64,000 nucleotides of DNA, from contig NZ_QKMF01000005.1 of assembly GCF_003208435.1 (NCBI RefSeq), positions 62,001-126,000 on the forward strand. The letters run 5' to 3'. This DNA is from Pelagimonas varians. GTDB lineage: Bacteria; Pseudomonadota; Alphaproteobacteria; Rhodobacterales; Rhodobacteraceae. The notes under the pieces were generated by a model. That model did not search any database and was not told where the DNA came from. It saw only the letters and a program-made list of their open reading frames with translations. The position numbers and the translations under genes are program-made. Below are positions 20,360 to 33,634 of this stretch, one piece after another. Positions within the stretch are counted from its first letter, which is position 1, and each line of letters starts with the position of its first letter.

Positions 20360-21379
20360 TCAAACCTCGTCAATCCTGACCGTGCGTTGGTCCTCGGCCG
20401 ACCTTGTTATTGCTTCCAGAACTTCGATATTGTGGACAAGTTCCTCAGTTGTAAACGGATAGGGTTCTAGTCCAAGAGCGGCCTTTTTAAAGGCCTGCAG
20501 ATTATGGGTGACCGCATCTTCCCATTCATAGTTGGTTGTTGCGACACCGGTGTCGGTCCGGCCTTGGATATATCTGACATTGCCTCCGGGGGTGTCAGGG
20601 TGGGTTTCATTTATGACCTCAACCCATTCCGCTGTTCCGAACACATGCATGCGAATAAAATGGGGGGTGTGTAGGACCGCGCTTAGCGTGGCAGTCACAC
20701 CGGATTCAAATCCAAGCTGTGCTGTGACGACATCGCCGGTTTCCCATCCCAATGACCGGTTTGCGGTCATGGCCTGGACTGTTTCAACGCGCCCAAAGAA
20801 CGAGATGAACAAATCGGTCAAATGGATGCCCATTGCTGTCATACCCGCCGCGGGTGAAACGGCTTTGGTTGTGCGCCAATCGCCAATTGGGACGCCAATC
20901 AGCTTGTCATGACTAAAGGCTGCCTCGGCATGCATAATCGTACCCAGCGACTGGGATTCGATGGCCTGCTTAAGGGCCACCAAAGCGGGTTCAAAGCGGC
21001 GTTCATGACCAATACCGAGCTGCACACCTGCTTGGACGCAGGCCGCAGCGGACCGGCGCGCGCTATCGGCTGTCAGGCCCAGCGGTTTTTCGCAAAACAC
21101 ATGTTTTCCGGCCTTGGCGCAAGCGATGATTTGTTCTTCGTGTAGCGGATTTGGCGTTGTTAGAATGACGGCATCCATGTCCGGCAACTGCAAAGCTGCG
21201 TCGAGATCGTTTAGCGCTGTCAAAGACATCTCGGCGATCTTGCCGTGGTTGCCTTCAAATGGTTCAACAATGGCGCGGACACGAAAATCGGGATTGTCGA
21301 CCAGACGCTTAGCGATGTGGGTCCCCCACCAGCCAAACCCTGCGATAACAACGTTAAAGGGGGCGGATTGAGTCGTCAT
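20360..21379 (-). CDS. Gfo/Idh/MocA family oxidoreductase
   Basis: 339 residues. An N-terminal Rossmann fold (VVIAGFGWWGTHIAKRL, a GxGxxG type NAD(P) site) contains the family's dinucleotide-anchoring CEKPLG at about residue 95. A C-terminal alpha/beta substrate domain follows, with SPAAGMTAMGIHLTDLF carrying the usual catalytic His-x-x-D. Members oxidise or reduce hydroxyl groups of sugars, inositols and other polyols or cyclic compounds. The ATG at 21379 overlaps the stop of the flavin reductase gene by four bases, so the two are co-translated. It is divergent from the LLM monooxygenase operon. Confidence 0.85.
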   Translation of the reverse strand: MTTQSAPFNVVIAGFGWWGTHIAKRLVDNPDFRVRAIVEPFEGNHGKIAEMSLTALNDLDAALQLPDMDAVILTTPNPLHEEQIIACAKAGKHVFCEKPLGLTADSARRSAAACVQAGVQLGIGHERRFEPALVALKQAIESQSLGTIMHAEAAFSHDKLIGVPIGDWRTTKAVSPAAGMTAMGIHLTDLFISFFGRVETVQAMTANRSLGWETGDVVTAQLGFESGVTATLSAVLHTPHFIRMHVFGTAEWVEVINETHPDTPGGNVRYIQGRTDTGVATTNYEWEDAVTHNLQAFKKAALGLEPYPFTTEELVHNIEVLEAITRSAEDQRTVRIDEV

Positions 21380-21891
21380 AGAATTTCTCCGATGCGTGCA
21401 AAGGCACCTTTGTGAAACAGCAATGGCGACTTGCCTGCAACAGATTTGTACCGCTTTACACTCCCGATAAAGATCACGTGGTCGCCTCCGGGAATTTGGT
21501 TGACCGTTTCACATTCGATCACGGTGGCGGCCCGTGTAAGGACAGGCACGTCATTGACGCCATGACACCAGTTAACATCGGCGAACTTATTGTCCGAAGG
21601 GCGCGAAAAGTTCATGGCCAAATCGACCGAATCTTCACACAAAATATTGATCGCAAAATGCCCGTGGTTGCGAAAGGCGCTCAGGCTTGGTGCCGTCAGC
21701 GCCAGACTCCAAGCGACCAGCGCGGGATCTAACGAAATCGACGTAAAGGAATTTGCAGCAAGACCAACTGGGGCTCCGTTTTCGGCGATTGTTGTGATGA
21801 CAGTTACGCCGGTCGCAAATTGTCCGAAGGTGTCTCGTAGATCCTTAGGGTCAAAATTGGCGATCTCTGGCTGGCAGGTCATTGAATTCAT
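21376..21891 (-). CDS. Flavin reductase family protein
   Basis: 171 residues of the FMN-binding split-barrel flavin reductase family: DTFGQFATGVTVITT at the start, GLAANSFTSISLDPALVAWSL for flavin contact, and GDHVIFIGSVK near the end. Such proteins pass reduced FMN or FAD to two-component monooxygenases; the natural partner is the luciferase-like monooxygenase encoded divergently. I chose the ATG at 21891 because GGAGAG lies 6 bp upstream; further in-frame starts exist above and below it. It is the first gene of a two-gene minus-strand operon. Confidence 0.85.
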   Translation of the reverse strand: MNSMTCQPEIANFDPKDLRDTFGQFATGVTVITTIAENGAPVGLAANSFTSISLDPALVAWSLALTAPSLSAFRNHGHFAINILCEDSVDLAMNFSRPSDNKFADVNWCHGVNDVPVLTRAATVIECETVNQIPGGDHVIFIGSVKRYKSVAGKSPLLFHKGAFARIGEIL

Positions 21892-21974
21892 ACGACTCTC
21901 CATCGGTTTGGTTGCCGTATGATTCAAAACCTGCACCAAACAATCAACTTATGGTATTTGATGTCTTCCCTCAA

Positions 21975-22030
21975 AATTTCTGATGGGGCGTCCAAGAATG
22001 GTCATCAGGTAAACTGATATTATACATCAG
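21975..22030. promoter_or_regulatory. Repeated CTGAT/ATCAG half-sites in the divergent promoter
   Basis: Two inverted pairs occur within about 50 bp: CTGATG at 21980 with CATCAG at 22003, and CTGAT at 22014 with ATCAG at 22026, the last pair forming a compact 17-bp dyad around an AT-rich centre. Their place between the flavin reductase and LLM monooxygenase genes, with a LysR gene in the same cluster, suggests operators. Which protein binds is inference. Confidence 0.4.
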
Positions 22031-22101
22031 AAAGCATCATTTTCTCCACTGCGAAACTTCATGCTCTACAGAATGCAGCACTGAAAAAGGCGGAGGGACG
22101 C

Positions 22102-23211
22102 ATGAAGCTTTCATTTTTTACCATGCCGATTCACCCATTGGGGAAACCGGTTTGGCAAAGTCTTCAAGAAGATCGGGAAGCGTTTATTCTCGCGGATGAA
22201 CTTGGGTTTGTCGAAGGCTACTGCGGCGAGCACACAACAGATCACGCAGAGATCATTACGTCGACAGTCGCCTTTATGGCGAGCCTTGCCTACGAGACGA
22301 AAAACATCATCCTTGGCACCGGCACTGTCAATTTGCCGAACTCGCACCCCGCGCGCGTTGCGGCTGAGGTGGCGATGTTGGATCATATGCTAAAGGGGCG
22401 TTTCCACTTTGGTATCTCGCCCGGTGGTTTGATGTCCGACGCCGAAGTTTTCGGCAATTTGGACAACGACCGGAACGCGATGTTCATCGAATGCATCGAC
22501 ATGGTTCTCAAAATCTGGGCAGGTGAGCCTCCCTATGACCTCAAGGGCGATTTCTATGAGGTCTCGACGCGCAACACCATGATGCCAGAGATCGGTCAGG
22601 GCGCGATCATCAAGCCCTACCAAGATCCGCATCCTCCCATTGTCGGCACTGTTGTGGCACCGTTCTCAAAGGGTGTGACTGCTATGGCTGCACGCGGCTG
22701 GGAACCGATTTCGGCCAACTTCCTGCTGCCCAAGTGGGTCAAAACGCATTGGCCGAACTATGTCGAAGGCTGCAAACAGGGGGGCCGCCCGGCCAAGTTT
22801 GATAACTGGAGCGTCGCCAAGAATATTTGCGTCGCGGACGACATGGCCACAGCGCGCGCTTATGCCCGCGATCCGGCAAGCCCCTATGTCTATTACTATA
22901 GCCAGTTGTTGACGAAACTACGGGCCGGTGGCCGTCTCAATCTGTTCAAAGAAGATCAGAACATGAGTGATGATGATGTGACATTGGATTATGTCATGGA
23001 CAAATTGGTCATTTATGGTGACCCCTCCAGCGTTGCGGACCAAGTCCTTGAGTTTCAGGAACAAGTAGGCCCGTTCGGCAAGCTGGTTTACGCAGGCCAT
23101 GATTGGGCTGATCGTGATCTTGGTCGCCGTTCGATGATCTTGATGGCTGAAAAAGTCTTGCCCAAAGTGAACACTGCCCTTTCTGCGACGGCTATTGGTG
23201 CTGCGCAATGA
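22102..23211 (+). CDS. LLM-class flavin-dependent monooxygenase (bacterial luciferase-like)
   Basis: 369 residues with the luciferase-like TIM-barrel layout. It begins MKLSFFTMPIHPLGK, followed by DELGFVEGYCGEHTTDH, LGTGTVNLPNSHPARVAAEVAMLDHM and GRFHFGISPGG, the usual substrate and FMN-binding blocks. It uses reduced flavin from a partner reductase to insert oxygen into its substrate (hydroxylation, epoxidation or Baeyer-Villiger oxidation). The N-terminal half resembles limonene-monooxygenase-like members, but the substrate is not predictable. AGGGACGC lies close upstream. Its stop overlaps the start of the hydrolase gene (ATGA), so the two are coupled. It heads the plus-strand part of the cluster. 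Confidence 0.87.
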   Translation: MKLSFFTMPIHPLGKPVWQSLQEDREAFILADELGFVEGYCGEHTTDHAEIITSTVAFMASLAYETKNIILGTGTVNLPNSHPARVAAEVAMLDHMLKGRFHFGISPGGLMSDAEVFGNLDNDRNAMFIECIDMVLKIWAGEPPYDLKGDFYEVSTRNTMMPEIGQGAIIKPYQDPHPPIVGTVVAPFSKGVTAMAARGWEPISANFLLPKWVKTHWPNYVEGCKQGGRPAKFDNWSVAKNICVADDMATARAYARDPASPYVYYYSQLLTKLRAGGRLNLFKEDQNMSDDDVTLDYVMDKLVIYGDPSSVADQVLEFQEQVGPFGKLVYAGHDWADRDLGRRSMILMAEKVLPKVNTALSATAIGAAQ

Positions 23212-24014
23212 CCGATACGCTGACGCTACAAGATGGCATATCGATCAACTACCGCATTGATGGTCCTGAGGGGGCGGATTGGATTATCTTGTCCAATTCC
23301 CTGGCGACAGATTTGCGGCTGTGGGATGCAGAAGTCGAATATCTGAGCCAATCGATGCGGGTCCTTCGTTACGACACCCGTGGCCACGGTCAAAGCGATG
23401 CTAGCCCGGCTCCTTATACCTTCGATTTGCTCTGCGGTGACCTGGTTGCCTTGATGGATCACTTGTCGATCGAAAAGGCCGACATCATGGGGATTTCGCT
23501 TGGTGGGATGATCGCCTTGGCCATGGGCATAAACCATCCGGAGCGAGTGGGTCGCATTTTGTGTTGCGATGCCCGCGCTGATGCGCCCGCCACCTACAAG
23601 GCGATTTGGGATGGCAATATAGCCCGCCTTCATTCGGATGGATTGGCAACGCTCTGCGAGCCGACTTTGCAGCGATGGTTCACGGAACCTTTCCTTGCCG
23701 AGCCTGCGAGCAAGCCGAAACTGGACGTTGTGCGCGCGATGTTCAACGCAACTGCGCCTGATGGCTACGAAGGGGTGGCCCGATGCCTGCAATCCCTCGA
23801 TCTTCTGGCTGATTTGTCCAAGATCACGCAGCCGGTTCTGTATGTCACGGGTGCCGGCGATATGGCGGCACCCGTTGCGGTTATGCAGGCCATGTCAGAT
23901 GCCACGCCCAACAGTCGGTTCGACGTGATCGAGTCCGCAGCGCATCTTTCAAATCTGGAACAGCCCAAGGCGTTCGAGATGATTATTTCTGATTTTCTGG
24001 CGCTGTCAGCCTGA
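23208..24014 (+). CDS. Alpha/beta hydrolase, 3-oxoadipate enol-lactonase (PcaD) like
   Basis: 268 residues with the alpha/beta hydrolase fold: oxyanion segment LSNSLATDLRLWD, nucleophile elbow MGISLGGMIAL with the catalytic Ser near residue 95, acid in VTGAGDMAAP, and His in SAAHLSNLEQP. The LSNSLATDLRLWD and RYDTRGHGQSDAS blocks are close to PcaD enol-lactonases of the beta-ketoadipate pathway. No pcaC, pcaB or pcaHG lies nearby, so here it more likely opens a lactone or ester made by the preceding monooxygenase. Its start overlaps the monooxygenase stop by four bases. Confidence 0.85.
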   Translation: MTDTLTLQDGISINYRIDGPEGADWIILSNSLATDLRLWDAEVEYLSQSMRVLRYDTRGHGQSDASPAPYTFDLLCGDLVALMDHLSIEKADIMGISLGGMIALAMGINHPERVGRILCCDARADAPATYKAIWDGNIARLHSDGLATLCEPTLQRWFTEPFLAEPASKPKLDVVRAMFNATAPDGYEGVARCLQSLDLLADLSKITQPVLYVTGAGDMAAPVAVMQAMSDATPNSRFDVIESAAHLSNLEQPKAFEMIISDFLALSA

Positions 24015-24050
24015 AACCCAGCGAACACTACTTATAAAAGGAACGAAAAA

Positions 24051-24527
24051 TTGGGTGCAGTAAAAGAAAAGCCGATTTGGAAATTCAAGGTCACTGGTGG
24101 CCAGGATACGACGACGAAATCCCATGCCACAGCGCGTGGTAAAACAGTTGTCATTGACGAACCCATTCAGCGCGGCGGCACCGACGAAGGCCCTATGCCC
24201 GTTGAATACTTGTTCATGGGGCTGTTGGGGTGCACACAAGTGATTTCCAACAAGCTGGCGGCGCACAATGGCGTGTCGTTTACCAATATGGACATCGATA
24301 TCGCTGTGACCATGGACAGCCATGGCACACGTCTGATTTCCCCTGTCGCCATTCCTTTTCCCGAGGTGGTTTTGGACATCAACGTAACCTATGTGGGGGC
24401 CCGTGAAGGGGCCGTTGCTGTAACTCAGCAGCTGAAACACCATTGTGCGGTTTCTAAAATGCTGCAGGAATCCGGCACCCGCGTCATCGAAAACTGGGTT
24501 CTAAACGGCGAAGCCTTGTCCGCGTGA
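24051..24527 (+). CDS. OsmC family protein
   Basis: 158 residues. The OsmC/Ohr fold is shown by PVEYLFMGLLGCTQVISNKLA and HHCAVSKML, which hold the two redox-active cysteines (about residues 63 and 128). OsmC proteins reduce organic hydroperoxides; in a monooxygenase operon it may clear peroxide by-products or serve a thiol-dependent step. The start is a TTG at 24051 behind AAAGGA; no ATG is suitably placed. It lies 36 bp behind the hydrolase gene in the same direction. Confidence 0.82.
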   Translation: MGAVKEKPIWKFKVTGGQDTTTKSHATARGKTVVIDEPIQRGGTDEGPMPVEYLFMGLLGCTQVISNKLAAHNGVSFTNMDIDIAVTMDSHGTRLISPVAIPFPEVVLDINVTYVGAREGAVAVTQQLKHHCAVSKMLQESGTRVIENWVLNGEALSA

Positions 24528-24564
24528 CATGGCCGGTCTAATGCTGTGATCAAGGGGTAGACTT

Positions 24565-25344
24565 ATGACATTTTCGGTTTTGCCCCAGATCATGGTGGCT
24601 CCAAATGGTGCCCGCAAAAGCGTGGCGGACCACGCGGCTCTGCCAGTGAGTATTGGTGAGTTGGTAAGTGATGCCCGGCAGTGTTTTGCTGCCGGAGCAG
24701 GGGGCTTGCATGCCCATGTCCGCGATGCCTCAGGCGCGCATGTGTTGGATGCTGGTTTGTATCACGAATTATTGTCAGAAATGGCAGCGCAAATCCCAAA
24801 GATGCTGGTGCAAATCACAACCGAAGCGGTTGGCCGATATAGCCCCGAACAGCAAATGCAATTGGTCCGGTCTGTCAAGCCGCGCTGTGTTTCCATTGCT
24901 TTACGTGAAATGACGCAGGATCAAAGCGATGCGAAACTACGGGCGTTCTATCACGAACTGAACGATGCGCAGGTGAACGTACAGCATATTTTGTATTCGC
25001 CCGAGGAAATTGGCGACTTTGCGACGCGCGTTTCTAAGGGTGTTATCCCGCGTCACAATGCCGAAGTGTTGGTCGTGCTGGGCCGCTACGAAAAAAACCA
25101 ACAAAGCACACCTGCGGACTTGGTGCCCTTTATGGCGGGACTCCAAAGTCACGTGCCCGACATGCCTTGGGCGGTCTGCGCATTTGGCCACCAAGAAACC
25201 GCTTGTCTGGTCGAAGCTGCAAAACATGGTGGCAAGCAGCGGATCGGATTTGAAAACAATTTGTTCAATTCTGATGGCACATTGGCCGAAAACAATGCAC
25301 AGCGTGTTTCGGAACTGGTTCGTGCGCTAGGTGCGGATCAATAA
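24565..25344 (+). CDS. Beta-keto acid cleavage enzyme (BKACE, DUF849)
   Basis: 259 residues. The TIM-barrel enzyme shows the zinc-binding LHAHVRDASGAH (two His near residues 48-50), QITTEAVGRYSPEQQ on the next strands, and the terminal HGGKQRIGFENNL block where the catalytic Arg and metal-binding Glu sit in the Kce family. Family members transfer the keto-acyl part of a beta-keto acid onto acetyl-CoA, giving acetoacetate and a new CoA ester. Substrates in the family differ, so the natural one is open; in this cluster it would be the ring-cleavage product. About 40 bp behind OsmC, same strand. Confidence 0.85.
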   Translation: MTFSVLPQIMVAPNGARKSVADHAALPVSIGELVSDARQCFAAGAGGLHAHVRDASGAHVLDAGLYHELLSEMAAQIPKMLVQITTEAVGRYSPEQQMQLVRSVKPRCVSIALREMTQDQSDAKLRAFYHELNDAQVNVQHILYSPEEIGDFATRVSKGVIPRHNAEVLVVLGRYEKNQQSTPADLVPFMAGLQSHVPDMPWAVCAFGHQETACLVEAAKHGGKQRIGFENNLFNSDGTLAENNAQRVSELVRALGADQ

Positions 25345-25374
25345 CGGCATCTGCCAAGTGAAAGCCAAACACCT

Positions 25375-26262
25375 GTGATCCAAATCATCGACACAGTCGC
25401 CCCGATTTTCATCATCACATTGATAGGCTTTTTGTTTGGGCGTTCAAAGTTCGATCTTCATGTGGCCACGCTCAGCACGGTCGTTATTATGGTCGGACTT
25501 CCATCGCTGATTTTTTCTTCGTTGACGTCGATGGACATGTCGCTGGAACGCCTCGGAGAGGTGTTTTTGGCCGCCGTAAGCTGTATGGTGATTGCTGCTA
25601 TTTTCTCCTTGGGTGTTGTCAAAGCCTTCGGGTTTTCGGTGCGTACATTTCTTCCAAGCCTGATCTTTCCCAATTCTGGCAACATGGGTTTGCCATTGGC
25701 ATTTCTGGCGTTCGGAGACATCGGTCTTCGACTGGCCATCGCTTATTTCGTGGTGATCGCCCTGTTGCAACACACGGTAGGGATGACCATTGCGTCGGGC
25801 AAATATGATCTGGGATCTTTGTTGCGCCAACCGCTCATATATTCCGTCATTGGCGTGTTGATCGTCATTGGGTTTGACTTCACAGTTCCGAATTTCATTG
25901 TCTCTACAACTGAAATATTGGGTGGGTTGATGATCCCCTCCATGTTGATTTTACTTGGGAATTCACTTGCAAGCCTCAAGATTTCAGATGCAGGCCCAGC
26001 CATTGTCGTAGCCATTGCGCGTCTGGTTATTGGATGCGCCGCCGCCTTTGGCACTATTTGGTTTTTGGGCCTGTCAGGCACGCTGGCCGGCGTCGTGTTT
26101 TTGCTGTCAACAATGCCAACCGCAGTGGTTACATACGTCTATGCCGAACGGTTCCGGCCTGATCCCGAAAAGATCGCAGGCGCTGTTGTGATGTCGACAC
26201 TTTTGACATTCGCCCTGCTGCCCGGCCTTATCCACATTGCAAAAGCCATTTCGTTGCATTGA
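25375..26262 (+). CDS. AEC family transporter
   Basis: 295 residues with about ten hydrophobic segments, starting VAPIFIITLIGFLFGRS. It contains the auxin-efflux-carrier (AEC) hallmarks LPSLIFPNSGNMGLPLA in the middle and a second half that resembles the first. Members move organic anions such as malate or malonate, or auxin-like carboxylates. GTG start at 25375. It follows BKACE by about 30 bp and precedes the LysR gene; a role in exporting or importing a carboxylate of the same pathway is inference. Confidence 0.87.
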   Translation: MIQIIDTVAPIFIITLIGFLFGRSKFDLHVATLSTVVIMVGLPSLIFSSLTSMDMSLERLGEVFLAAVSCMVIAAIFSLGVVKAFGFSVRTFLPSLIFPNSGNMGLPLAFLAFGDIGLRLAIAYFVVIALLQHTVGMTIASGKYDLGSLLRQPLIYSVIGVLIVIGFDFTVPNFIVSTTEILGGLMIPSMLILLGNSLASLKISDAGPAIVVAIARLVIGCAAAFGTIWFLGLSGTLAGVVFLLSTMPTAVVTYVYAERFRPDPEKIAGAVVMSTLLTFALLPGLIHIAKAISLH

Positions 26263-26383
26263 TTTTGCCCGTGATTGCAGTCAATGTACGCCAATGATTT
26301 CAAGCGTTTCCTGCTCCGGTGTGGTTTTGCTATATTTTGTCCGAGGCTGGTCCTAGAAACAATAATCGGGTGTGGCTTGATCT

Positions 26384-27316
26384 ATGCGACATATCAAAAT
26401 CCAGCAAATGCGCTACTTTGTGGCGGTGTACGAAGAACGCTCGATCACGGCAGCGGCCCATCGTGTGAACGCGACGCAATCCGGCGTCAGTATGCAAATT
26501 CGCGACTTCGAAGACGGTATCGGACACAAGCTGTTTGAGCGGACGTCGACCGGAGTGACGCCGACCAAGGTGGGTGATCAGATCTACATTCGTTGCAATC
26601 GGGTTTTGTTGGAAGTTGACCAGCTGGCCGCTGATGTCGAAGCGCATACAGACCAGTTGTACGGTACGGTTCGCGCTGGAATTATGCCGACGTTCGCGAA
26701 ATCCATATTGGCCCCAACCTTGATCGAATTCGCCGGTGAACACCCGTTTGTCGATGTCAGGATTATTGAAGGTTATAGCGAAACTCTGACAGCCAAAGTG
26801 GCGCAGGGGGATTTGGATTTTGCGGTTGTTCCGGGTGGTGAATTGCCGATTGGCGTGCGCAGCACCCATGTTGATACTGATCTGGAAATTCTGGTGCAAA
26901 ACCGGAAAGACACCAAGGGCGATCCCGATCCGATCCATCTGACAACATCGCCGCCCCTCAATCTGGTGTTGCCAGGGCCAGGAAACGCGCGGCGCCCGCG
27001 CATCGACCGGTATCTGAGCAATATGTGCCAGTCCAAGCATTCCATTCTTGAACTCGATAGCATGATGGCGACCTTTGATTTGCTATATTGGGGGGGCTAC
27101 GCATCGGTGCTTCCCGGTTGTTTGTGCTTGCCGAGCATTGAAGACCCGAGGTTAAAGTTGTCGCCTTTGTTGGACCCCGTATTGCAAGTCGATTATCTGT
27201 TGATCGAACCGACCGCCAAGGCGCGATCCAAGGCTGTTTCCGCCTTTGCCGACAGCCTGTGTGCACAAATCAATAAGTGGTGTCAGTTCGGACGAGATAC
27301 ATACTCAAGAGACTGA
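26384..27316 (+). CDS. LysR family transcriptional regulator
   Basis: 310 residues. An N-terminal winged helix (MRYFVAVYEERSITAAAHRVNATQSG...) of the LysR type spans about residues 1-65, with the family's FERTSTGVTPTKVG segment. An effector-binding domain with a periplasmic-binding fold follows (about 90-300). It sits between the AEC transporter and the tripartite transporter genes, on the same strand, so it probably controls the cluster in response to a substrate or intermediate. Candidate targets are the divergent region near 22000 and the region before tctB. Confidence 0.9.
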   Translation: MRHIKIQQMRYFVAVYEERSITAAAHRVNATQSGVSMQIRDFEDGIGHKLFERTSTGVTPTKVGDQIYIRCNRVLLEVDQLAADVEAHTDQLYGTVRAGIMPTFAKSILAPTLIEFAGEHPFVDVRIIEGYSETLTAKVAQGDLDFAVVPGGELPIGVRSTHVDTDLEILVQNRKDTKGDPDPIHLTTSPPLNLVLPGPGNARRPRIDRYLSNMCQSKHSILELDSMMATFDLLYWGGYASVLPGCLCLPSIEDPRLKLSPLLDPVLQVDYLLIEPTAKARSKAVSAFADSLCAQINKWCQFGRDTYSRD

Positions 27317-27633
27317 TTATGTTCGGTTAAATGCAGCAAATAGACACCGATCAACCGGGATTCGCCTTCTTGGTCGCTGGAGGATACCTTGAAACACGCA
27401 GAAACATGCTATCCGGCCCTTGAAAAGAGATGTCGGGCCATCATGTTTTCTGATTCCGTCCATAAGAACTCATAAATTGTTTTGACGGCGTAATTCCATA
27501 TCATCATCAAAGATACACGTGAAGATCAGCAAATGCTGAGGTCGAAAACCCTCTCACATTTGCGGAATCACTTGAATCTCCGTCGCCAAAGGATCGGTGC
27601 CGGAACTCTGTGGGCTTAGGGAGGGCACCACCG
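27317..27633 (+). promoter_or_regulatory. Leader region of the tripartite transporter genes
   Basis: About 317 bp without a gene between the LysR stop and tctB. It contains a 14-bp palindrome (27536-27549) and AT-rich stretches near 27445-27520 that could hold the promoter. The ribosome site AGGGAGGG at 27618-27625 sits 8 bp before the GTG start of tctB. Confidence 0.5.
27536..27549. promoter_or_regulatory. Palindrome TCAGCAAATGCTGA before tctB
   Basis: Perfect six-base arms (TCAGCA/TGCTGA) with a two-base centre, about 85 bp upstream of the tctB start. The size and symmetry fit a dimeric repressor operator, but no matching regulator is identifiable. Confidence 0.35.
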
Positions 27634-28146
27634 GTGAAATCTATGAAACTAACGTCTGAGCAATGGATCGTACTTGCGCTATTTGCATGCGCGGCATTGT
27701 CGGCGATCTTTGTTAACAGTTTGGTCGCGCCACCCAAAGTTTTGTTTGGTCGATCATTAACTGCAATTACCCCTAGCCTGTTCCCGCTGATTATCCTCAG
27801 CGCTTTGGCTATTCTATGTGGGGCATTCTTTGTCTGGCGCCACAAAAATCCGGGCGACTTTGTCGGCAACAGATTGTCGACGGGGGCGTGGGTTCGCGGG
27901 ACAATGCTGTTCACCATCATGACCCTGTACGCCTTGCTGATGGAACCCGTCGGTTTCTGGATATCTTCCGCCCTGTCGCTGACTTTGCTGTCATGGTTGG
28001 CAGGCAACCGGTCTATCCCGCAAATTGCGGCCCTTTCATTAATCTCGCCAGTCTTGCTGTATCTCGCAGCTACACGGCTGTTGGCGGTTTCGCTGCCAGA
28101 GTTGAACACCATCGAACTGTTCTATGCGCGTGTTCTCGGGCTGTGA
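27634..28146 (+). CDS. tctB: Tripartite tricarboxylate transporter, small membrane subunit TctB
   Basis: 170 residues with four predicted membrane helices (about 10-30, 45-65, 88-108 and 115-150), the layout of the TctB subunit. The family is known to be poorly conserved; the identification rests on topology and on its place directly before tctA and tctC. I chose the GTG at 27634 because AGGGAGGG lies 8 bp upstream; an ATG at 27643 is possible. Confidence 0.82.
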   Translation: MKSMKLTSEQWIVLALFACAALSAIFVNSLVAPPKVLFGRSLTAITPSLFPLIILSALAILCGAFFVWRHKNPGDFVGNRLSTGAWVRGTMLFTIMTLYALLMEPVGFWISSALSLTLLSWLAGNRSIPQIAALSLISPVLLYLAATRLLAVSLPELNTIELFYARVLGL

Positions 28147-28185
28147 CCCGAACGCCAAAAATACAAAAATACAAGAGGATCTAGC

Positions 28186-29667
28186 ATGCTAGAGCAATTC
28201 ATGGCCGGCTTCGGAATGGCCTTGCGATTAGACACATTCCTTCTGATGAGTGCAGGCTTGTTTGGTGGAATGCTGGTTGGGGCCCTGCCGGGTTTCACAA
28301 CACTGATGGCGATGGCGATCTTACTACCCATTTCGTTTTTCCTTGATCCACTGGTGGGCATTCCTTTTTTGCTGGGGGTCTACAAAGGAGGAATTTTTGG
28401 CGGGTCCATTCCTGCCATTCTGGTCTCCATGCCGGGTACGGGCGCTGCGGTTGCAACATCGCGGGACGGCTACAAGCTGACGCAACAAGGTAAATCGCGA
28501 AAAGCGCTTGATATGGCTTTGTTCTCTTCGGTGTTCGGTGATCTTTCGAGCGACATCTTCACCATCATCATGATCTTTCCCATCGCCTTTTTGGTGATGC
28601 AATTCGGCCCGCCAGAGCTGTTCGCGGTCTTGTTGCTGAGCTTGGTCATCATTGCCGCCACATCGGGCGAAAATCCGGTCAAAAGCCTGATAATGATGCT
28701 TTTAGGGTTGTGGTTGTCCTTTATCGGTACTGACCCTTTGGGCGGCGTTGAGCGGTTCACCTTTGGGATTTTTGATCTGAAATCCGGCATTCCGTTACTG
28801 CCAATGTTGATCGGTGTCTTTGCCATCCCTGAAATCGCGGGTGTGGTTATGCGATCTGACGGAATTCGGCATCTTTCGAGCCTTGTTGGCGAACGCCTGT
28901 CGTTCAAAGAGTTTAGGGCCAGTTTCAAAACAATCTGTCGGTCTACTGTCATCGGAACGGGCATCGGAATTATCCCCGGCCTTGGGCAGGTAGTTGCCGC
29001 CATGATGGGGTACTCAGCGGCGAAAAATGCCTCTGATCATCCGGAAACCTTTGGTGAAGGCGAGCTGGAAGGCATCGCAGCGGCCGAAGCTGCCAACAAC
29101 GCTGTGAACGGGCCGACCATGGTGCCGCTACTGACGCTTGGCATTCCGGGTGACAACGTAACAGCGATTTTACTTGGGGCCTTTGTGGCGCAGGGGCTGC
29201 GGCCCGGTCCGCAACTGTTCGAAGAGCAGGGCGCAACTGTTTTTGCAATCCTGATTGCGATGGTATTTGCCAATGTCTTGTTCTTGGCGATTGGCTACCT
29301 GTCGATCCCGTTCTTTTCTCGGTTGGTTCAGATCAAGACATCTGTCCTGATCCCGATCGTTATCATGTTTGCTTTTGCCGGAACCTTTGTTTTCCGCTCT
29401 GACAACTTTGACCTGCTGATGCTGGTGGTCTTCGGGATCTTTGGATTGGTGGCGCAGGCTGGCCGGTTTGATGTGATGCCTATGGTTATGGGCTTCATCC
29501 TTGGGCCGCCCATGGAATACGCCTTTGGTCAAACGGTGGCGATGGGCAACGGCGCGACAATGGCCTTTTTGTTCGAGGAACGGGTTGGAGCCATCTGCGT
29601 CCTGATCGCGGCCCCGATTGCTGGCATCGCCCTTTGGCGGCGTATGCGCACTGTTTCAACAAGCTGA
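28186..29667 (+). CDS. tctA: Tripartite tricarboxylate transporter, large permease TctA
   Basis: 493 residues, about twelve membrane segments. Signature blocks are GMLVGALPGFTTLMAMAIL, GIFGGSIPAILVSMPGTGAA, GIIPGLGQVVAAMMGYSAAK and LGIPGDNVTAILLGAF, all typical of TctA. It forms the proton- or sodium-coupled channel that takes the substrate handed over by TctC. It lies 40 bp behind tctB and 68 bp before tctC. Confidence 0.93.
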   Translation: MLEQFMAGFGMALRLDTFLLMSAGLFGGMLVGALPGFTTLMAMAILLPISFFLDPLVGIPFLLGVYKGGIFGGSIPAILVSMPGTGAAVATSRDGYKLTQQGKSRKALDMALFSSVFGDLSSDIFTIIMIFPIAFLVMQFGPPELFAVLLLSLVIIAATSGENPVKSLIMMLLGLWLSFIGTDPLGGVERFTFGIFDLKSGIPLLPMLIGVFAIPEIAGVVMRSDGIRHLSSLVGERLSFKEFRASFKTICRSTVIGTGIGIIPGLGQVVAAMMGYSAAKNASDHPETFGEGELEGIAAAEAANNAVNGPTMVPLLTLGIPGDNVTAILLGAFVAQGLRPGPQLFEEQGATVFAILIAMVFANVLFLAIGYLSIPFFSRLVQIKTSVLIPIVIMFAFAGTFVFRSDNFDLLMLVVFGIFGLVAQAGRFDVMPMVMGFILGPPMEYAFGQTVAMGNGATMAFLFEERVGAICVLIAAPIAGIALWRRMRTVSTS

Positions 29668-29734
29668 CATAACGGGGTGGTTCGCTTCGCCCAGCCTGAC
29701 CGTAAAAACCAAAGAAGCACAATGGAGGAAACAC

Positions 29735-30694
29735 ATGATTAAATCTTCACTCAAAAAGCTGGCGGTTGCCGCTGGTTTTGCCGCTGCACTGCTGCCGTCC
29801 GCCGCCCTTGCGGAGTATCCGGAAAAGCCGATCACAATGGTTATTCCGTTTGGTGCAGGTGGATCGCATGACTTGAACGCCCGGGTGATCACGTCGATTA
29901 TTCCGACCTATCTGGAACAGGCGATGATTGTGCGTTTGACTCCGGGTGCGGGCGGACAAAAAGGCACGCAAGAAGTGGCCAATGCGGCGGCGGATGGCTA
30001 CACCTTGCTGTTCACGCACAACTACGTCGACATGTTGCAGCAGTACGTTGAAAATCTGCCCTATGATCCGCTCGAAGATTTTATCCCGATTGCGCGTGTT
30101 AACTATGCGCCGATTGGTGTGGTTGTGCGGGCCGATAGCCCTTATCAGACCTTTGAAGAACTGGTTGCGGCAGCTGAAAAAGATCCAGGCGGTATCCGCA
30201 TGTCGCATTCTGGCAACTGGGGGGCCTTGTTCGTTCCTGCTGCACAGATCATGAAAGAACGCGGAATTTCATTGAACCTCGTACCTTACAAAGGCGGCGG
30301 TCCGGCTATGCAGGCCTTGCTGTCTGGTGATGCGGACGTGACGATGGGGTTCCCTTCGACACTGGGATCGCAAATCGAATCCGGTACTGTTCGCGTCTTG
30401 GCAACGGCGGGTGCAGAGCGGATGTTTGATGATGTGCCAACCTTTGCCGAAGTCGGCGTCGAAGGCGATGTCGGCTTTATGCACCGTGTTTTGGTTGCGC
30501 CCAAAGGCACACCGGATGAGGTCGTTGCCAAGCTCACTACAGCCTTCGAGGCCTTGGTCGAAGACAAAACCTTTGTGCGAATGATGGGACGTTTGAACGA
30601 AACCATCGATCTTGTTGATGGTCCCGGCTACCAGAAGATGCGCGAAGATCAGGCTGTGGCTTACAAAGAACTGGTCGACGCACTGACCAAATAA
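29735..30694 (+). CDS. tctC: Tripartite tricarboxylate transporter, periplasmic binding protein TctC
   Basis: 319 residues. A signal peptide (MIKSSLKKLAVAAGFAAALL...LA) is followed by the Bug/TctC core YPEKPITMVIPFGAGGSHD, TPGAGGQKGTQEVANAAADGYT and NLVPYKGGGPAMQALLSGD. These proteins bind carboxylates (citrate, tartrate, aromatic acids and many others) with high affinity. I chose the ATG at 29735 for its GGAGGA site and because the signal peptide begins there; the longer frame overlaps tctA. Periplasmic partner of TctAB. Confidence 0.92.
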   Translation: MIKSSLKKLAVAAGFAAALLPSAALAEYPEKPITMVIPFGAGGSHDLNARVITSIIPTYLEQAMIVRLTPGAGGQKGTQEVANAAADGYTLLFTHNYVDMLQQYVENLPYDPLEDFIPIARVNYAPIGVVVRADSPYQTFEELVAAAEKDPGGIRMSHSGNWGALFVPAAQIMKERGISLNLVPYKGGGPAMQALLSGDADVTMGFPSTLGSQIESGTVRVLATAGAERMFDDVPTFAEVGVEGDVGFMHRVLVAPKGTPDEVVAKLTTAFEALVEDKTFVRMMGRLNETIDLVDGPGYQKMREDQAVAYKELVDALTK

Positions 30695-30818
30695 TCGGGT
30701 GCGCCCGACATCGGGGGCGGCGGGGGCCAAGTCAGGTTTTGCCGCCCTATTCACTACGCTTTGAACGAACCGGTGATCTATCGGCATATAGGCCCGGAAA
30801 ATGAAGATTGAGGAACGT

Positions 30819-31889
30819 ATGAGACAGGTAGAAGTCGCCGTTATCGGAACCGGATGGTGCGGAGGAATTCGGGCTGAGACACTGTCCAGATCTGCACTGG
30901 TGGATAAGCTGCACATCTGTGAAATCCGCCCCGAGCGCCTGCAAGAGGTCAAAGAGTTGACCAACCCTGCAACGGCGACGGATGACTACATGGATATCGT
31001 CAAAAATCCGGCGATCGAAGTTGTCTATATCTCAACAACCCCCGAACAGAGCCACTATCCGATTGCGCGGGACTGCATCAAAGCCGGCAAAAATGTTCTG
31101 TTGGAGAAACCACTGGCGCTTGAGCTGTCTGAGGCTGATGAGCTGATTGCATTGTCGAAAGAAAAGGGTGTCAAATTCACCATTGGCTATTCGCAGCGTT
31201 TCAACCCCAAGATCGCTTATGCCAAAAAATCGATTGCCAATGGCACCTTGGGCAAGGTGGTCAACGTTATGGTCAGCCGCCATTTGTCACGCAATCTGGG
31301 CAAGAAGATCGCCAATCGGGTCAAACTATCGCCAGCAGCGATGGAATCCACGCATGATCTCGATTTTGTATTTTGGCTGTTGGCTCCGGCGAAACCTGTG
31401 CGGGTCTATTCGCAAGGGGCTTACGGATACATGAAAGATCTGAACGGGTCTTACGATTGCATGTGGAGCACCGTCACAATGGATGACGGTACGCTGGTTG
31501 TAATCGGGGGCGGGTGGAATTTGCCGCCAAGTTTCCCGAATTACTGTGGTACTTGGATCGAGATTACCGGGACCGACGGGGCCCTAATTCTAGACGATAC
31601 CAGTCGCGACAACTGGATGAACACGGTGAAAGATGGAACATATTTCCCGATGTCCACAATGCCGGGTGAACAGGTGGATCATGCCTTCGCAGGTCAAATG
31701 GGACCGGAAACACTGCACTTCCTCGAAGCGGTGCTGTTGGATACCGAAGTAATGGTGTCCCCTGAACATGCCCGAACTGTGATGGAAGCATACACAGGGG
31801 CTGACATCTCGGCTGAAACCAATGAACCCGTCGGATTGCCATTGTCGAACCACTCTTTGGCGATATTGGCGGACCTGAAGGGGCACTAA
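30819..31889 (+). CDS. Gfo/Idh/MocA family oxidoreductase (second copy in the cluster)
   Basis: 356 residues. Rossmann start VAVIGTGWCGGIRAETL, dinucleotide-anchoring LLEKPLALEL and the substrate-domain segment ESTHDLDFVFWLLAP with His and Asp in the catalytic positions. It differs clearly from the copy at 20360-21379, so it is not a recent duplicate. I chose the ATG at 30819 (GAGGAA 3-5 bp upstream); another in-frame ATG lies at 30801. It follows tctC by about 124 bp in the same direction and closes the cluster. Confidence 0.85.
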   Translation: MRQVEVAVIGTGWCGGIRAETLSRSALVDKLHICEIRPERLQEVKELTNPATATDDYMDIVKNPAIEVVYISTTPEQSHYPIARDCIKAGKNVLLEKPLALELSEADELIALSKEKGVKFTIGYSQRFNPKIAYAKKSIANGTLGKVVNVMVSRHLSRNLGKKIANRVKLSPAAMESTHDLDFVFWLLAPAKPVRVYSQGAYGYMKDLNGSYDCMWSTVTMDDGTLVVIGGGWNLPPSFPNYCGTWIEITGTDGALILDDTSRDNWMNTVKDGTYFPMSTMPGEQVDHAFAGQMGPETLHFLEAVLLDTEVMVSPEHARTVMEAYTGADISAETNEPVGLPLSNHSLAILADLKGH

Positions 31890-33025: not shown

Positions 33026-33169
33026 GGTCGTTCAAGGTGCGCCAGATGACCAGCACCGTTGATACCTATGTTTATGATCCAGAGGATGAGGGGGGCGGCG
33101 GCGAGATTGAACTTGACTACGAGTAGACCAAAATCGTGATCCCTGAGCGCGGGCAAAGCCGCGTTTATG

Positions 33170-33412
33170 AATTCACAGTGTCTGGACGGCGGGACGTTGA
33201 ACGCATTTGATGACTTCAATCGAGTGCGACCAAGCATTGAGGTTGATTTCCCGTTGCCTGCCGAACGCGTTGTACACAGCTTGAACCAGATCATTGCATG
33301 GCGTGGAAAGCCAAAGGCGATTCCGGTTGATAATGGACCCGAGTATGTCAGTGGAAAACTCATGGAATGGGTCGGAAAGCGCGATGTGCATCTTGAACAC
33401 ATCCAGCCCGGA
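33170..33412 (+). pseudogene. IS3-family transposase fragment
   Basis: One open frame carries LNAFDDFNRV, IEVDFPLPAERVVHSLNQII, WRGKPKAIPVDNGPEYVSG and HIQPG, the central DDE (rve) part of IS3-family OrfB. The N-terminal and C-terminal parts are missing, and after HIQPG the similarity ends abruptly. The same family is present on the opposite strand at 37110-37900. Confidence 0.8.
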
Positions 33413-33573
33413 CTACAAGATCATCCGTGTCGAGGGTCTGCTACCGTGGAAGACTGCTTTATAGGAGCGGCTAGGCCGGACGCGCAGGCGGTTCTTCCCG
33501 AAAGCCATTTTGAACAATCAAATAACAGGTCAACTAGGACATCTCGACGCTCGGCAATGCGGAGATTATGTTG

Positions 33574-33634
33574 AAAAACCGGTCCCCGGCCAACGGGGTT
33601 TTTCGGGGGCAGGTCACTCATAAGTGACCTGCCT
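33574..33634. terminator. Two hairpins behind the AraC gene
   Basis: A 10-bp perfect stem GCAGGTCACT/AGTGACCTGC with a four-base loop lies at 33611-33634, 14 bp after the AraC stop on the minus strand. Next to it, AAAAACC...GGTTTTT flanks CCCCG/CGGGG at 33574-33605, giving A/T-bordered ends on both strands. Together they look like a bidirectional terminator. Confidence 0.6.

What the first reader, a model, noticed from the sequence alone, without database searches (positions are those of the whole stretch)
20360..31889. Candidate new catabolic system: two-component flavin monooxygenase, lactonase-like hydrolase, BKACE and TTT transporter
Seen: flavin reductase and oxidoreductase divergent from LLM monooxygenase, PcaD-like hydrolase, OsmC protein, BKACE, AEC transporter, LysR, tctBAC and a second oxidoreductase. 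Known: BKACE turns a beta-keto acid plus acetyl-CoA into acetoacetate and a CoA ester; LLM enzymes with a reductase oxygenate small cyclic or terpenoid compounds; TTT systems import carboxylates. Inference: import of a hydroxylated cyclic carboxylate, dehydrogenation by the Gfo/Idh/MocA enzymes, oxygen insertion to a lactone, hydrolysis to a beta-keto acid and cleavage by BKACE. I know no described pathway with this set.
Basis: inference. Interest (0 to 1): 0.75.

Follow-up and report, generated by a model that had tools for sequence, protein, structure and literature searches.

The report
Co-inherited oxygenase–lactonase–transporter catabolic gene set
Twelve neighbouring bacterial genes look like one pathway that imports a small acid, oxidises its ring with a two-part flavin enzyme and opens it, but the enzyme thought to finish the job lacks residues known to drive that reaction, so its last step and its substrate are still unknown.

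Summary
In 295 genomes of the same family the LLM monooxygenase occurs in 24; close relatives of OX1, OX2 and TctA occur in 20, 11 and 9, all within those 24 and nested, and some of them lie far from the LLM gene. The LLM model's best solved match is 3,6-diketocamphane monooxygenase, a type II Baeyer-Villiger enzyme, and the hydrolase scores just under the PcaD cut-off, so dehydrogenation, oxygen insertion and lactone hydrolysis is a sound inference. The BKACE step is not. The window protein keeps the zinc ligands, but Ile stands where BKACE has its catalytic Glu base and Asn where it has a conserved Asp, as in every sampled member of its branch (57 and 55 sequences). Glu-to-Leu there abolishes BKACE activity, two DUF849 groups are not BKACE (one decarboxylates), and relatives include an epoxide hydrolase (papers). 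Most likely it works without acetyl-CoA, perhaps as a beta-keto acid decarboxylase. New variant of a known kind.

The parts
20360..21379 (-). OX1, Gfo/Idh/MocA family dehydrogenase
   Evidence: PF01408 7.6e-22; EKP motif in 36 of 36 loci copies of at least 45% identity; present in 20 of 295 family genomes at E<=1e-110, all LLM-positive
21376..21894 (-). FR, flavin reductase partner
   Evidence: PF01613 5.8e-39; GDH motif in 59 of 60; 31 of 34 complete close loci
22102..23211 (+). LLM, luciferase-like monooxygenase, type II BVMO-like by fold
   Evidence: PF00296 1.3e-37; model pLDDT 90.5, best PDB match 4uwm/5aec, E 7e-26, TM 0.84
23208..24014 (+). PcaD-like alpha/beta hydrolase, probable lactone or enol-lactone hydrolase
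   Evidence: TIGR02427 248.2 bits, cut-off 255.85; GxSxGG in 59 of 62; a second, over-cut-off PcaD lies elsewhere in the genome
24051..24527 (+). OsmC-family protein
   Evidence: PF02566 2.1e-11; 15 of 34 complete close loci; the two-cysteine pattern GC...HC in only 15 of 28 copies
24565..25344 (+). DUF849 protein, zinc TIM barrel; matches the BKACE family but lacks the catalytic Glu and Asp
   Evidence: PF05853 2.5e-50; H49, H51, E230 at the Zn-ligand columns, I142 at the base column, N231 at the Asp column; model pLDDT 90.9, best fold match Kce 2y7d/2y7e
25375..26262 (+). AEC-family permease
   Evidence: PF03547 1.6e-21; 19 of 34 complete close loci
26384..27316 (+). LysR-type regulator
   Evidence: PF00126 and PF03466; 33 of 34 complete close loci, weak matches included
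27646..28146 (+). TctB
   Evidence: PF07331 6.9e-16
28186..29667 (+). TctA
   Evidence: PF01970 1.4e-129; 9 of 295 family genomes at E<=1e-180, all with LLM, OX1 and OX2
29735..30694 (+). TctC binding protein
   Evidence: PF03401 5.2e-49; nearest solved sequences are Bug/TctC proteins, BugD best
30801..31889 (+). OX2, second Gfo/Idh/MocA dehydrogenase
   Evidence: PF01408 1.6e-21; 11 of 295 family genomes at E<=1e-150, all LLM-positive, on another contig than LLM in 4 of 11

Best explanation
The genes encode one aerobic catabolic route for a small organic acid. Shown: LLM, OX1, OX2 and TctA are inherited together, the rest by conserved neighbourhood. Inferred: all the chemistry. TctABC (in other genomes a TRAP transporter) brings in the acid, under LysR control. 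OX1 and/or OX2 oxidise a ring hydroxyl to a ketone. FR supplies reduced FMN to the LLM enzyme, which inserts oxygen next to the ketone (Baeyer-Villiger) to give a lactone. The PcaD-like hydrolase opens it to an acid, probably a beta-keto acid. The DUF849 protein then acts on that acid at its zinc site without acetyl-CoA Claisen chemistry, most likely by decarboxylation.
For: Co-inheritance: LLM in 24 of 295 family genomes; OX1 20 of 20, OX2 11 of 11 and TctA 9 of 9 fall inside those 24. Hypergeometric p is 2e-27 for OX1 and 8e-14 for OX2. Most copies lie within 30 kb of the LLM (16 of 20 OX1, 7 of 11 OX2); the others are far off or on another contig of the same genome. The sample has 294 genera in 295 genomes, and the one same-genus genome, G218, has none of the four at the thresholds used. 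LLM fold: best matches are 3,6-diketocamphane 1,6-monooxygenase, ahead of luciferases, F420 enzymes and SsuD (one search agrees by sequence). The hydrolase is nearly over the PcaD equivalog cut-off. DUF849: zinc-ligand columns and Tyr144 kept, but Ile at the base and Asn at the Asp column. E171L abolishes BKACE activity (PMC11961710 section 9, read). Group G6 of DUF849 decarboxylates and is not BKACE (PMC4922564 section 22, read).
Against: DUF849 is found in only 20 of 34 complete close LLM loci and in 0 of 17 with LLM below 74% identity, so it is not essential to the LLM step. PcaD-like matches range down to 33% identity. 4 of the 24 LLM genomes lack OX1 at the threshold used, one of them with an LLM of only 43% identity. 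LLM enzymes also do other chemistry (desulfonation and epoxidation, PMC5395668 passages; N-heterocycle opening, recalled). I could not tell whether the window DUF849 branch equals group G6, G7 or neither. The p-values treat genomes as independent.
Confidence: 0.4

Rival explanations
1. One reading: lactone hydrolysis gives a beta-keto acid that a true BKACE cleaves with acetyl-CoA to acetoacetate and an acyl-CoA.
For: PF05853 over its cut-off; fold closest to Kce; Zn-ligand columns, Arg226 and the conserved Tyr kept. Pairing an enol-lactonase-like hydrolase with a beta-keto acid enzyme is chemically sensible.
Against: The base Glu is Ile (56) or Leu (1) in 57 branch sequences and the Asp is Asn in 55 of 55 that reach that column, against Glu and Asp in 31 of 31 canonical ones sampled. 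E171L abolishes BKACE activity (PMC11961710 section 9).
Confidence: 0.12
2. The LLM enzyme opens an N-heterocyclic carboxylate ring (as, from memory, RutA, TgnB and PyrA do), and the PcaD/RutD-like hydrolase removes an acyl or formyl group.
For: The hydrolase also matches RutD (2.1e-29). More distant LLM loci, mostly marine SAR116 (62-68% identity), carry a CoxL-type molybdenum hydroxylase (11 loci), a PRK07236-type FAD monooxygenase (11) and PF04199 cyclases (12 and 10); such a set is, from memory, typical of N-heteroaromatic breakdown. Of four LLM relatives at 39-43% identity whose surroundings I read, three sit with a succinate-semialdehyde dehydrogenase and one (Ancylobacter) with RidA.
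Against: None of the twelve window genes matched an amidase, isochorismatase or ammonia-releasing family. RutA is not among the 25 NCBIfam matches of the LLM at E<=1e-3. Two co-inherited Gfo/Idh/MocA dehydrogenases suggest a hydroxylated ring.
Confidence: 0.2
3. The pathway handles a sugar- or cyclitol-derived acid: OX1/OX2 are polyol or glycoside 3-dehydrogenases and the LLM splits the keto ring.
For: The best NCBIfam match of OX1 and OX2 is inositol 2-dehydrogenase, far below its cut-off. PDB sequence neighbours of both include inositol dehydrogenases, aldose-aldose oxidoreductase and DgpA, DgpA being the best for OX2. Five loci add a DapA/KDG-type aldolase and a Zn-dehydrogenase whose third-best NCBIfam match is scyllo-inosose 3-dehydrogenase.
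Against: These matches are below the curated cut-offs. None of the twelve genes matched a sugar isomerase or glycosidase.
Confidence: 0.2
4. Unrelated genes that happen to be neighbours.
For: Gene order is shuffled between genomes and only 3 of 80 loci keep the eleven-gene order.
Against: Nested presence across 295 genomes, unlinked in several. None of 20 stretches around DUF849 relatives fetched from other places holds any other window gene at over 80 bits.
Confidence: 0.03

Closest known systems
Diketocamphane monooxygenases (camphor degradation, two-component type II BVMO; PMC8706424, passages)
   Same: LLM oxygenase fed by a separate flavin reductase; best fold match of the window LLM
   Different: 23% identity; the camphor route (recalled) has other entry and downstream enzymes and no TTT, OX1/OX2 or DUF849
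SAR202 dehydrogenase/FMNO (type II BVMO)/lactonase scheme for recalcitrant DOM (PMC5395668, passages)
   Same: Same order of chemistry: alcohol to ketone, oxygen insertion, lactone hydrolysis
   Different: In the passages read it is argued from enzyme families in other bacteria, not from a cluster with TTT, Gfo/Idh/MocA and DUF849 genes
BKACE / Kce (DUF849)
   Same: Fold, zinc-ligand columns, Arg and Tyr
   Different: Base Glu is Ile and Asp is Asn, as in the whole sampled branch
PcaD 3-oxoadipate enol-lactonase
   Same: Full-length match, nucleophile motif
   Different: About 7.6 bits under the equivalog cut-off; genome has another, over-cut-off PcaD
CESH[D], D-tartrate-forming cis-epoxysuccinate hydrolase
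   Same: Kce-like metal-dependent TIM barrel doing non-BKACE hydrolysis (PMC6429283, passages)
   Different: About 20% identity to the window protein; only two of the three Kce metal ligands are conserved in CESH[D] (same passages)

Membership tests
BKACE (PF05853) | Pfam match over curated cut-off | tested here: met
   171.8 bits, cut-off 24.8
BKACE (PF05853) | Zinc ligands His, His, Glu | tested here: met
   H49, H51, E230; HHE in all sequences that reach these columns
BKACE (PF05853) | Catalytic base Glu (E171 of P. denitrificans BKACE15) | tested here: not met
   I142 in the window; Ile 56 and Leu 1 of 57 branch members; E171L abolishes activity (PMC11961710 section 9). Column match by alignment, partly counted by hand; the small alignment places the Kce motif differently
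BKACE (PF05853) | Asp after the zinc Glu (Asp231 of Kce, numbering recalled) | tested here: not met
   Asn in 55 of 55 branch sequences that reach the column, Asp in 31 of 31 canonical
BKACE (PF05853) | Conserved Tyr (Tyr145 CcaKce, Tyr173 PdKce; PMC12871164, passages) | tested here: met
   Y144 invariant in 25 aligned sequences
BKACE (PF05853) | Acetyl-CoA dependent cleavage | not testable with these tools
   needs an assay
Type II (two-component, LLM) BVMO | Bacterial-luciferase fold with a separate flavin reductase encoded beside it | tested here: met
Type II (two-component, LLM) BVMO | Lactone formed from a cyclic ketone | not testable with these tools
   needs an assay
PcaD enol-lactonase | TIGR02427 equivalog cut-off | tested here: not met
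   248.2 against 255.85 bits
Tripartite tricarboxylate transporter | TctA, TctB and TctC subunits together | tested here: met
Rut pyrimidine pathway | RutA-type LLM | tested here: not met
   RutA not among the 25 NCBIfam matches of the LLM at E<=1e-3

The most novel reading that the evidence does not exclude
A pathway spread among marine alphaproteobacteria opens an oxygenated ring by Baeyer-Villiger insertion and ends with a new, CoA-independent DUF849 zinc enzyme (decarboxylase or hydrolase). Its branch, marked by Ile and Asn in place of the BKACE base and Asp, also serves a second, unrelated pathway with class-III aminotransferases and TAXI-TRAP transporters. Many proteins now called BKACE-like would then be something else.
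Probability: 0.3. Interest if true: 0.65.

Novelty: new variant of a known kind. Interest (0 to 1): 0.5.

Why it matters
It gives a short, testable gene set for an unassigned organic-acid pathway found in marine bacteria. It also shows that a sizeable, coherent branch of the DUF849 family (relatives of the window protein at E<=1e-40 in 34 of 240 class genomes), which genome annotation usually names 3-keto-5-aminohexanoate cleavage protein (name recalled), lacks, in every member sampled, the residue known to be needed for that reaction. Correcting this would change metabolic models of such genomes.

Tried and rejected
Looking for the substrate through OX2 outside LLM clusters: 4 of 337 class genomes at E<=1e-90, own included; the other three have copies at 46-52% identity; their surroundings were not read, so no clue. 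Rut membership: rejected. Homarine, trigonelline and pyridine pathways as a described match: the listings gave no paper with this gene set, and I opened none of those papers for it; TgnB and PyrA are from memory only. Two-component BVMO plus TTT literature: listings, nothing matching; only open-licence papers are held. I considered tying the window DUF849 branch to groups G6 or G7 of Bastard et al.; the logos are figures and could not be read, so this stays open. A beta-glutamate idea for the aminotransferase-linked copies is a guess and was not tested. Marinovum's second LLM cluster was checked as a homologue of this one; its LLM is SsuD-like and matches the window LLM only over 56 residues (34%), so it is a different system. 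Of 19 plasmid records with an LLM relative I read the surroundings of six.
Full report
OBSERVATION. The twelve genes are present at the given coordinates with the given families. OX1 and FR overlap by 4 bp on the minus strand and diverge over 207 bp from LLM. LLM overlaps the hydrolase gene by 4 bp. OsmC, DUF849 and AEC follow at 30-37 bp, then LysR at 121 bp. After a 329 bp gap come tctB, tctA, tctC and OX2, with gaps of 39, 67 and 106 bp between them. This reads as three transcription units (inference).

CONSERVED SET. A scan of one genome per species with the LLM protein confirmed 195 relatives, of which the best 80 were kept; many are cut by contig ends. Using matches over 80 bits, 51 loci have at least 7.9 kb on both sides, and 34 of these have LLM identity of 74% or more. 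In those 34, FR is found in 31, LysR in 33, the hydrolase in 31, OX1 in 21, DUF849 in 20, AEC in 19 and OsmC in 15; TctA of over 60% identity is in 19, a TRAP transporter in 9, neither in 6. In the other 17 the hydrolase is found in 11, FR in 12, DUF849 in 0 and AEC in 0. So LLM, FR, LysR and hydrolase are the core; DUF849, AEC and TTT belong to the closer clade. Weak matches are included except where an identity is given (hydrolase down to 33%). The eleven-gene order OX1 to TctC is kept in 3 of 80, with OX2 next in 2; OX1-FR-LLM-hydrolase in 12 more, one of them (L040) with a LysR gene in between. Some genomes add glutathione transferases and a peroxiredoxin (Marinovum plasmid), malate/lactate-type dehydrogenases, or LeuC/LeuD (five loci of that cluster); CaiB- and acyl-CoA-dehydrogenase-like genes beside them were named by eye in L025 only.

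CO-INHERITANCE. In 295 family genomes from 294 genera, LLM is in 24 (E<=1e-60), OX1 in 20 (E<=1e-110), OX2 in 11 (E<=1e-150) and TctA in 9 (E<=1e-180). I chose each threshold beforehand; relatives below it are not listed. By the genome lists, all 20, all 11 and all 9 lie within the 24, and the sets are nested. Hypergeometric p is 2e-27 for OX1 and 8e-14 for OX2, not corrected for phylogeny; 4 LLM genomes lack OX1, one of them with an LLM of 43% identity. OX1 lies more than 30 kb away or on another contig in 4 of 20, OX2 in 4 of 11; some of these are draft assemblies. In G243, OX1, OX2 and TctA sit together on one contig and the LLM on another. As a control, 20 stretches (2 of them short) around DUF849 relatives, taken from 20 of the 34 genomes found, hold none of the other eleven genes at over 80 bits.

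LLM AND HYDROLASE. The LLM model (35 sequences, pLDDT 90.5) matches 3,6-diketocamphane 1,6-monooxygenase best (E 7e-26, TM 0.84, 23% identity), then RslO1; luciferases, F420 enzymes and SsuD rank lower. The sequence search agrees. Landry et al. proposed the chain alcohol dehydrogenase, type II BVMO, lactone, esterase for SAR202 (PMC5395668, passages). The hydrolase is 7.6 bits short of the PcaD cut-off; the genome has another PcaD over the cut-off, so this copy is probably not the protocatechuate enzyme.

THE BKACE QUESTION. An alignment of 88 DUF849 proteins and a tree of 86 fall into two sides joined by a branch with 100/100 support. I sorted sequences by the base column; the Asp column and the tree were not used for sorting and agree. 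Canonical: Glu and Asp in 31 of 31. Window type: Ile in 56 and Leu in 1 of 57; Asn in 55 of 55 that reach that column. Zinc-ligand columns are kept wherever present. Limits: the canonical sample is 30 loci from the best-scoring matches plus one own-genome copy, so DUF849 diversity is not covered; the set holds near copies; the tree program warned that the long branch of that own-genome copy (L003) may be misplaced. The base column is Glu143 of Kce and Glu171 of P. denitrificans BKACE15, by counting by hand along the alignments (Kce numbering recalled); the alignment agrees in pairing the canonical ExE motif with QxI, but the small alignment opened a gap and placed the Kce motif four columns off. 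E171L abolished activity and E171D kept 5% (PMC11961710 section 9, read). Of seven DUF849 groups, G6 (70 proteins) decarboxylates and G7 (139) was inactive (PMC4922564 section 22, read). BsfD and CESH[D] are further members or relatives with other chemistry (PMC12871164, a preprint, and PMC6429283, passages); CESH[D] appears among the fold matches of the window protein right after the DUF849 structures and in the profile search at 4e-7. I therefore do not file the window protein as a BKACE. It may still act on a beta-keto acid: zinc, Arg226 and Tyr144 could suffice for decarboxylation (inference). The genome has five other BKACE-family copies scoring 300 bits or more, so a true BKACE may act elsewhere.

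SAME BRANCH ELSEWHERE. In the 20 stretches above, the DUF849 gene sits with a class-III aminotransferase in 16, a TRAP permease gene in 12, an NMT1-like (TAXI-type) binding protein in 12 and a SIS-domain (RpiR-like) regulator in 9, by sequence clusters of which one member each was checked in Pfam (the print was cut). The window's own genome has such a copy (L182). This fits an enzyme that takes beta-keto acids from more than one source (inference).

SUBSTRATE. Not settled. Two dehydrogenases of the polyol type and carboxylate-type transporters favour a hydroxylated cyclic acid; molybdenum hydroxylase, FAD monooxygenase and cyclase genes beside more distant LLM relatives favour an N-heterocycle for those.

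VERDICT. A real, co-inherited gene set, undescribed as far as my searches reach, with a sound oxygenation-hydrolysis core and a probably mislabelled last enzyme that is the most interesting part. Literature statements rest (listings) and on the passages and sections named above, in open-licence papers only.

Noticed in passing
L182 (own genome, C5:214000-229500), outside the window: Second window-type DUF849 copy after a DAO/GCV_T (dimethylglycine-dehydrogenase-like) gene and one small ORF before a class-III aminotransferase, with TRAP permease, TAXI-type binding protein and regulator genes.
   Followed up: partly
L163-L182: DUF849 of the Ile/Asn type with a class-III aminotransferase in 16 of 20 stretches and TRAP permease or TAXI-type genes in 12 of 20: a second conserved system with unknown substrate.
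   Followed up: partly
L183:2066-12493 (Marinovum pMaD9): Neighbouring cluster with SsuD-like LLM, FerA-like reductase, two Gfo/Idh/MocA dehydrogenases, aldo-keto reductase, esterase and sugar ABC transporter.
   Followed up: partly
L183:20511-21302 and similar ORFs in L031, L033, L038, L043, L060: Short LLM-like paralogue (about 260-290 aa, 27-34% identical to LLM) a few kb from the main LLM in TRAP-type clusters; possibly a second subunit.
   Followed up: no
L088, L091: LLM match with one in-frame stop counted in each, although open frames of 368 and 373 aa are reported; may only be the end of the gene.
   Followed up: no
L185, L187, L188: LLM relatives at 39-43% identity sit with riboflavin genes (ribB, ribBA or riboflavin kinase) and a succinate-semialdehyde dehydrogenase, suggesting local flavin supply.
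   Followed up: no
window 33167-33574: Short ORF that looks like an integrase/transposase fragment downstream of the cluster (by eye only).
   Followed up: no
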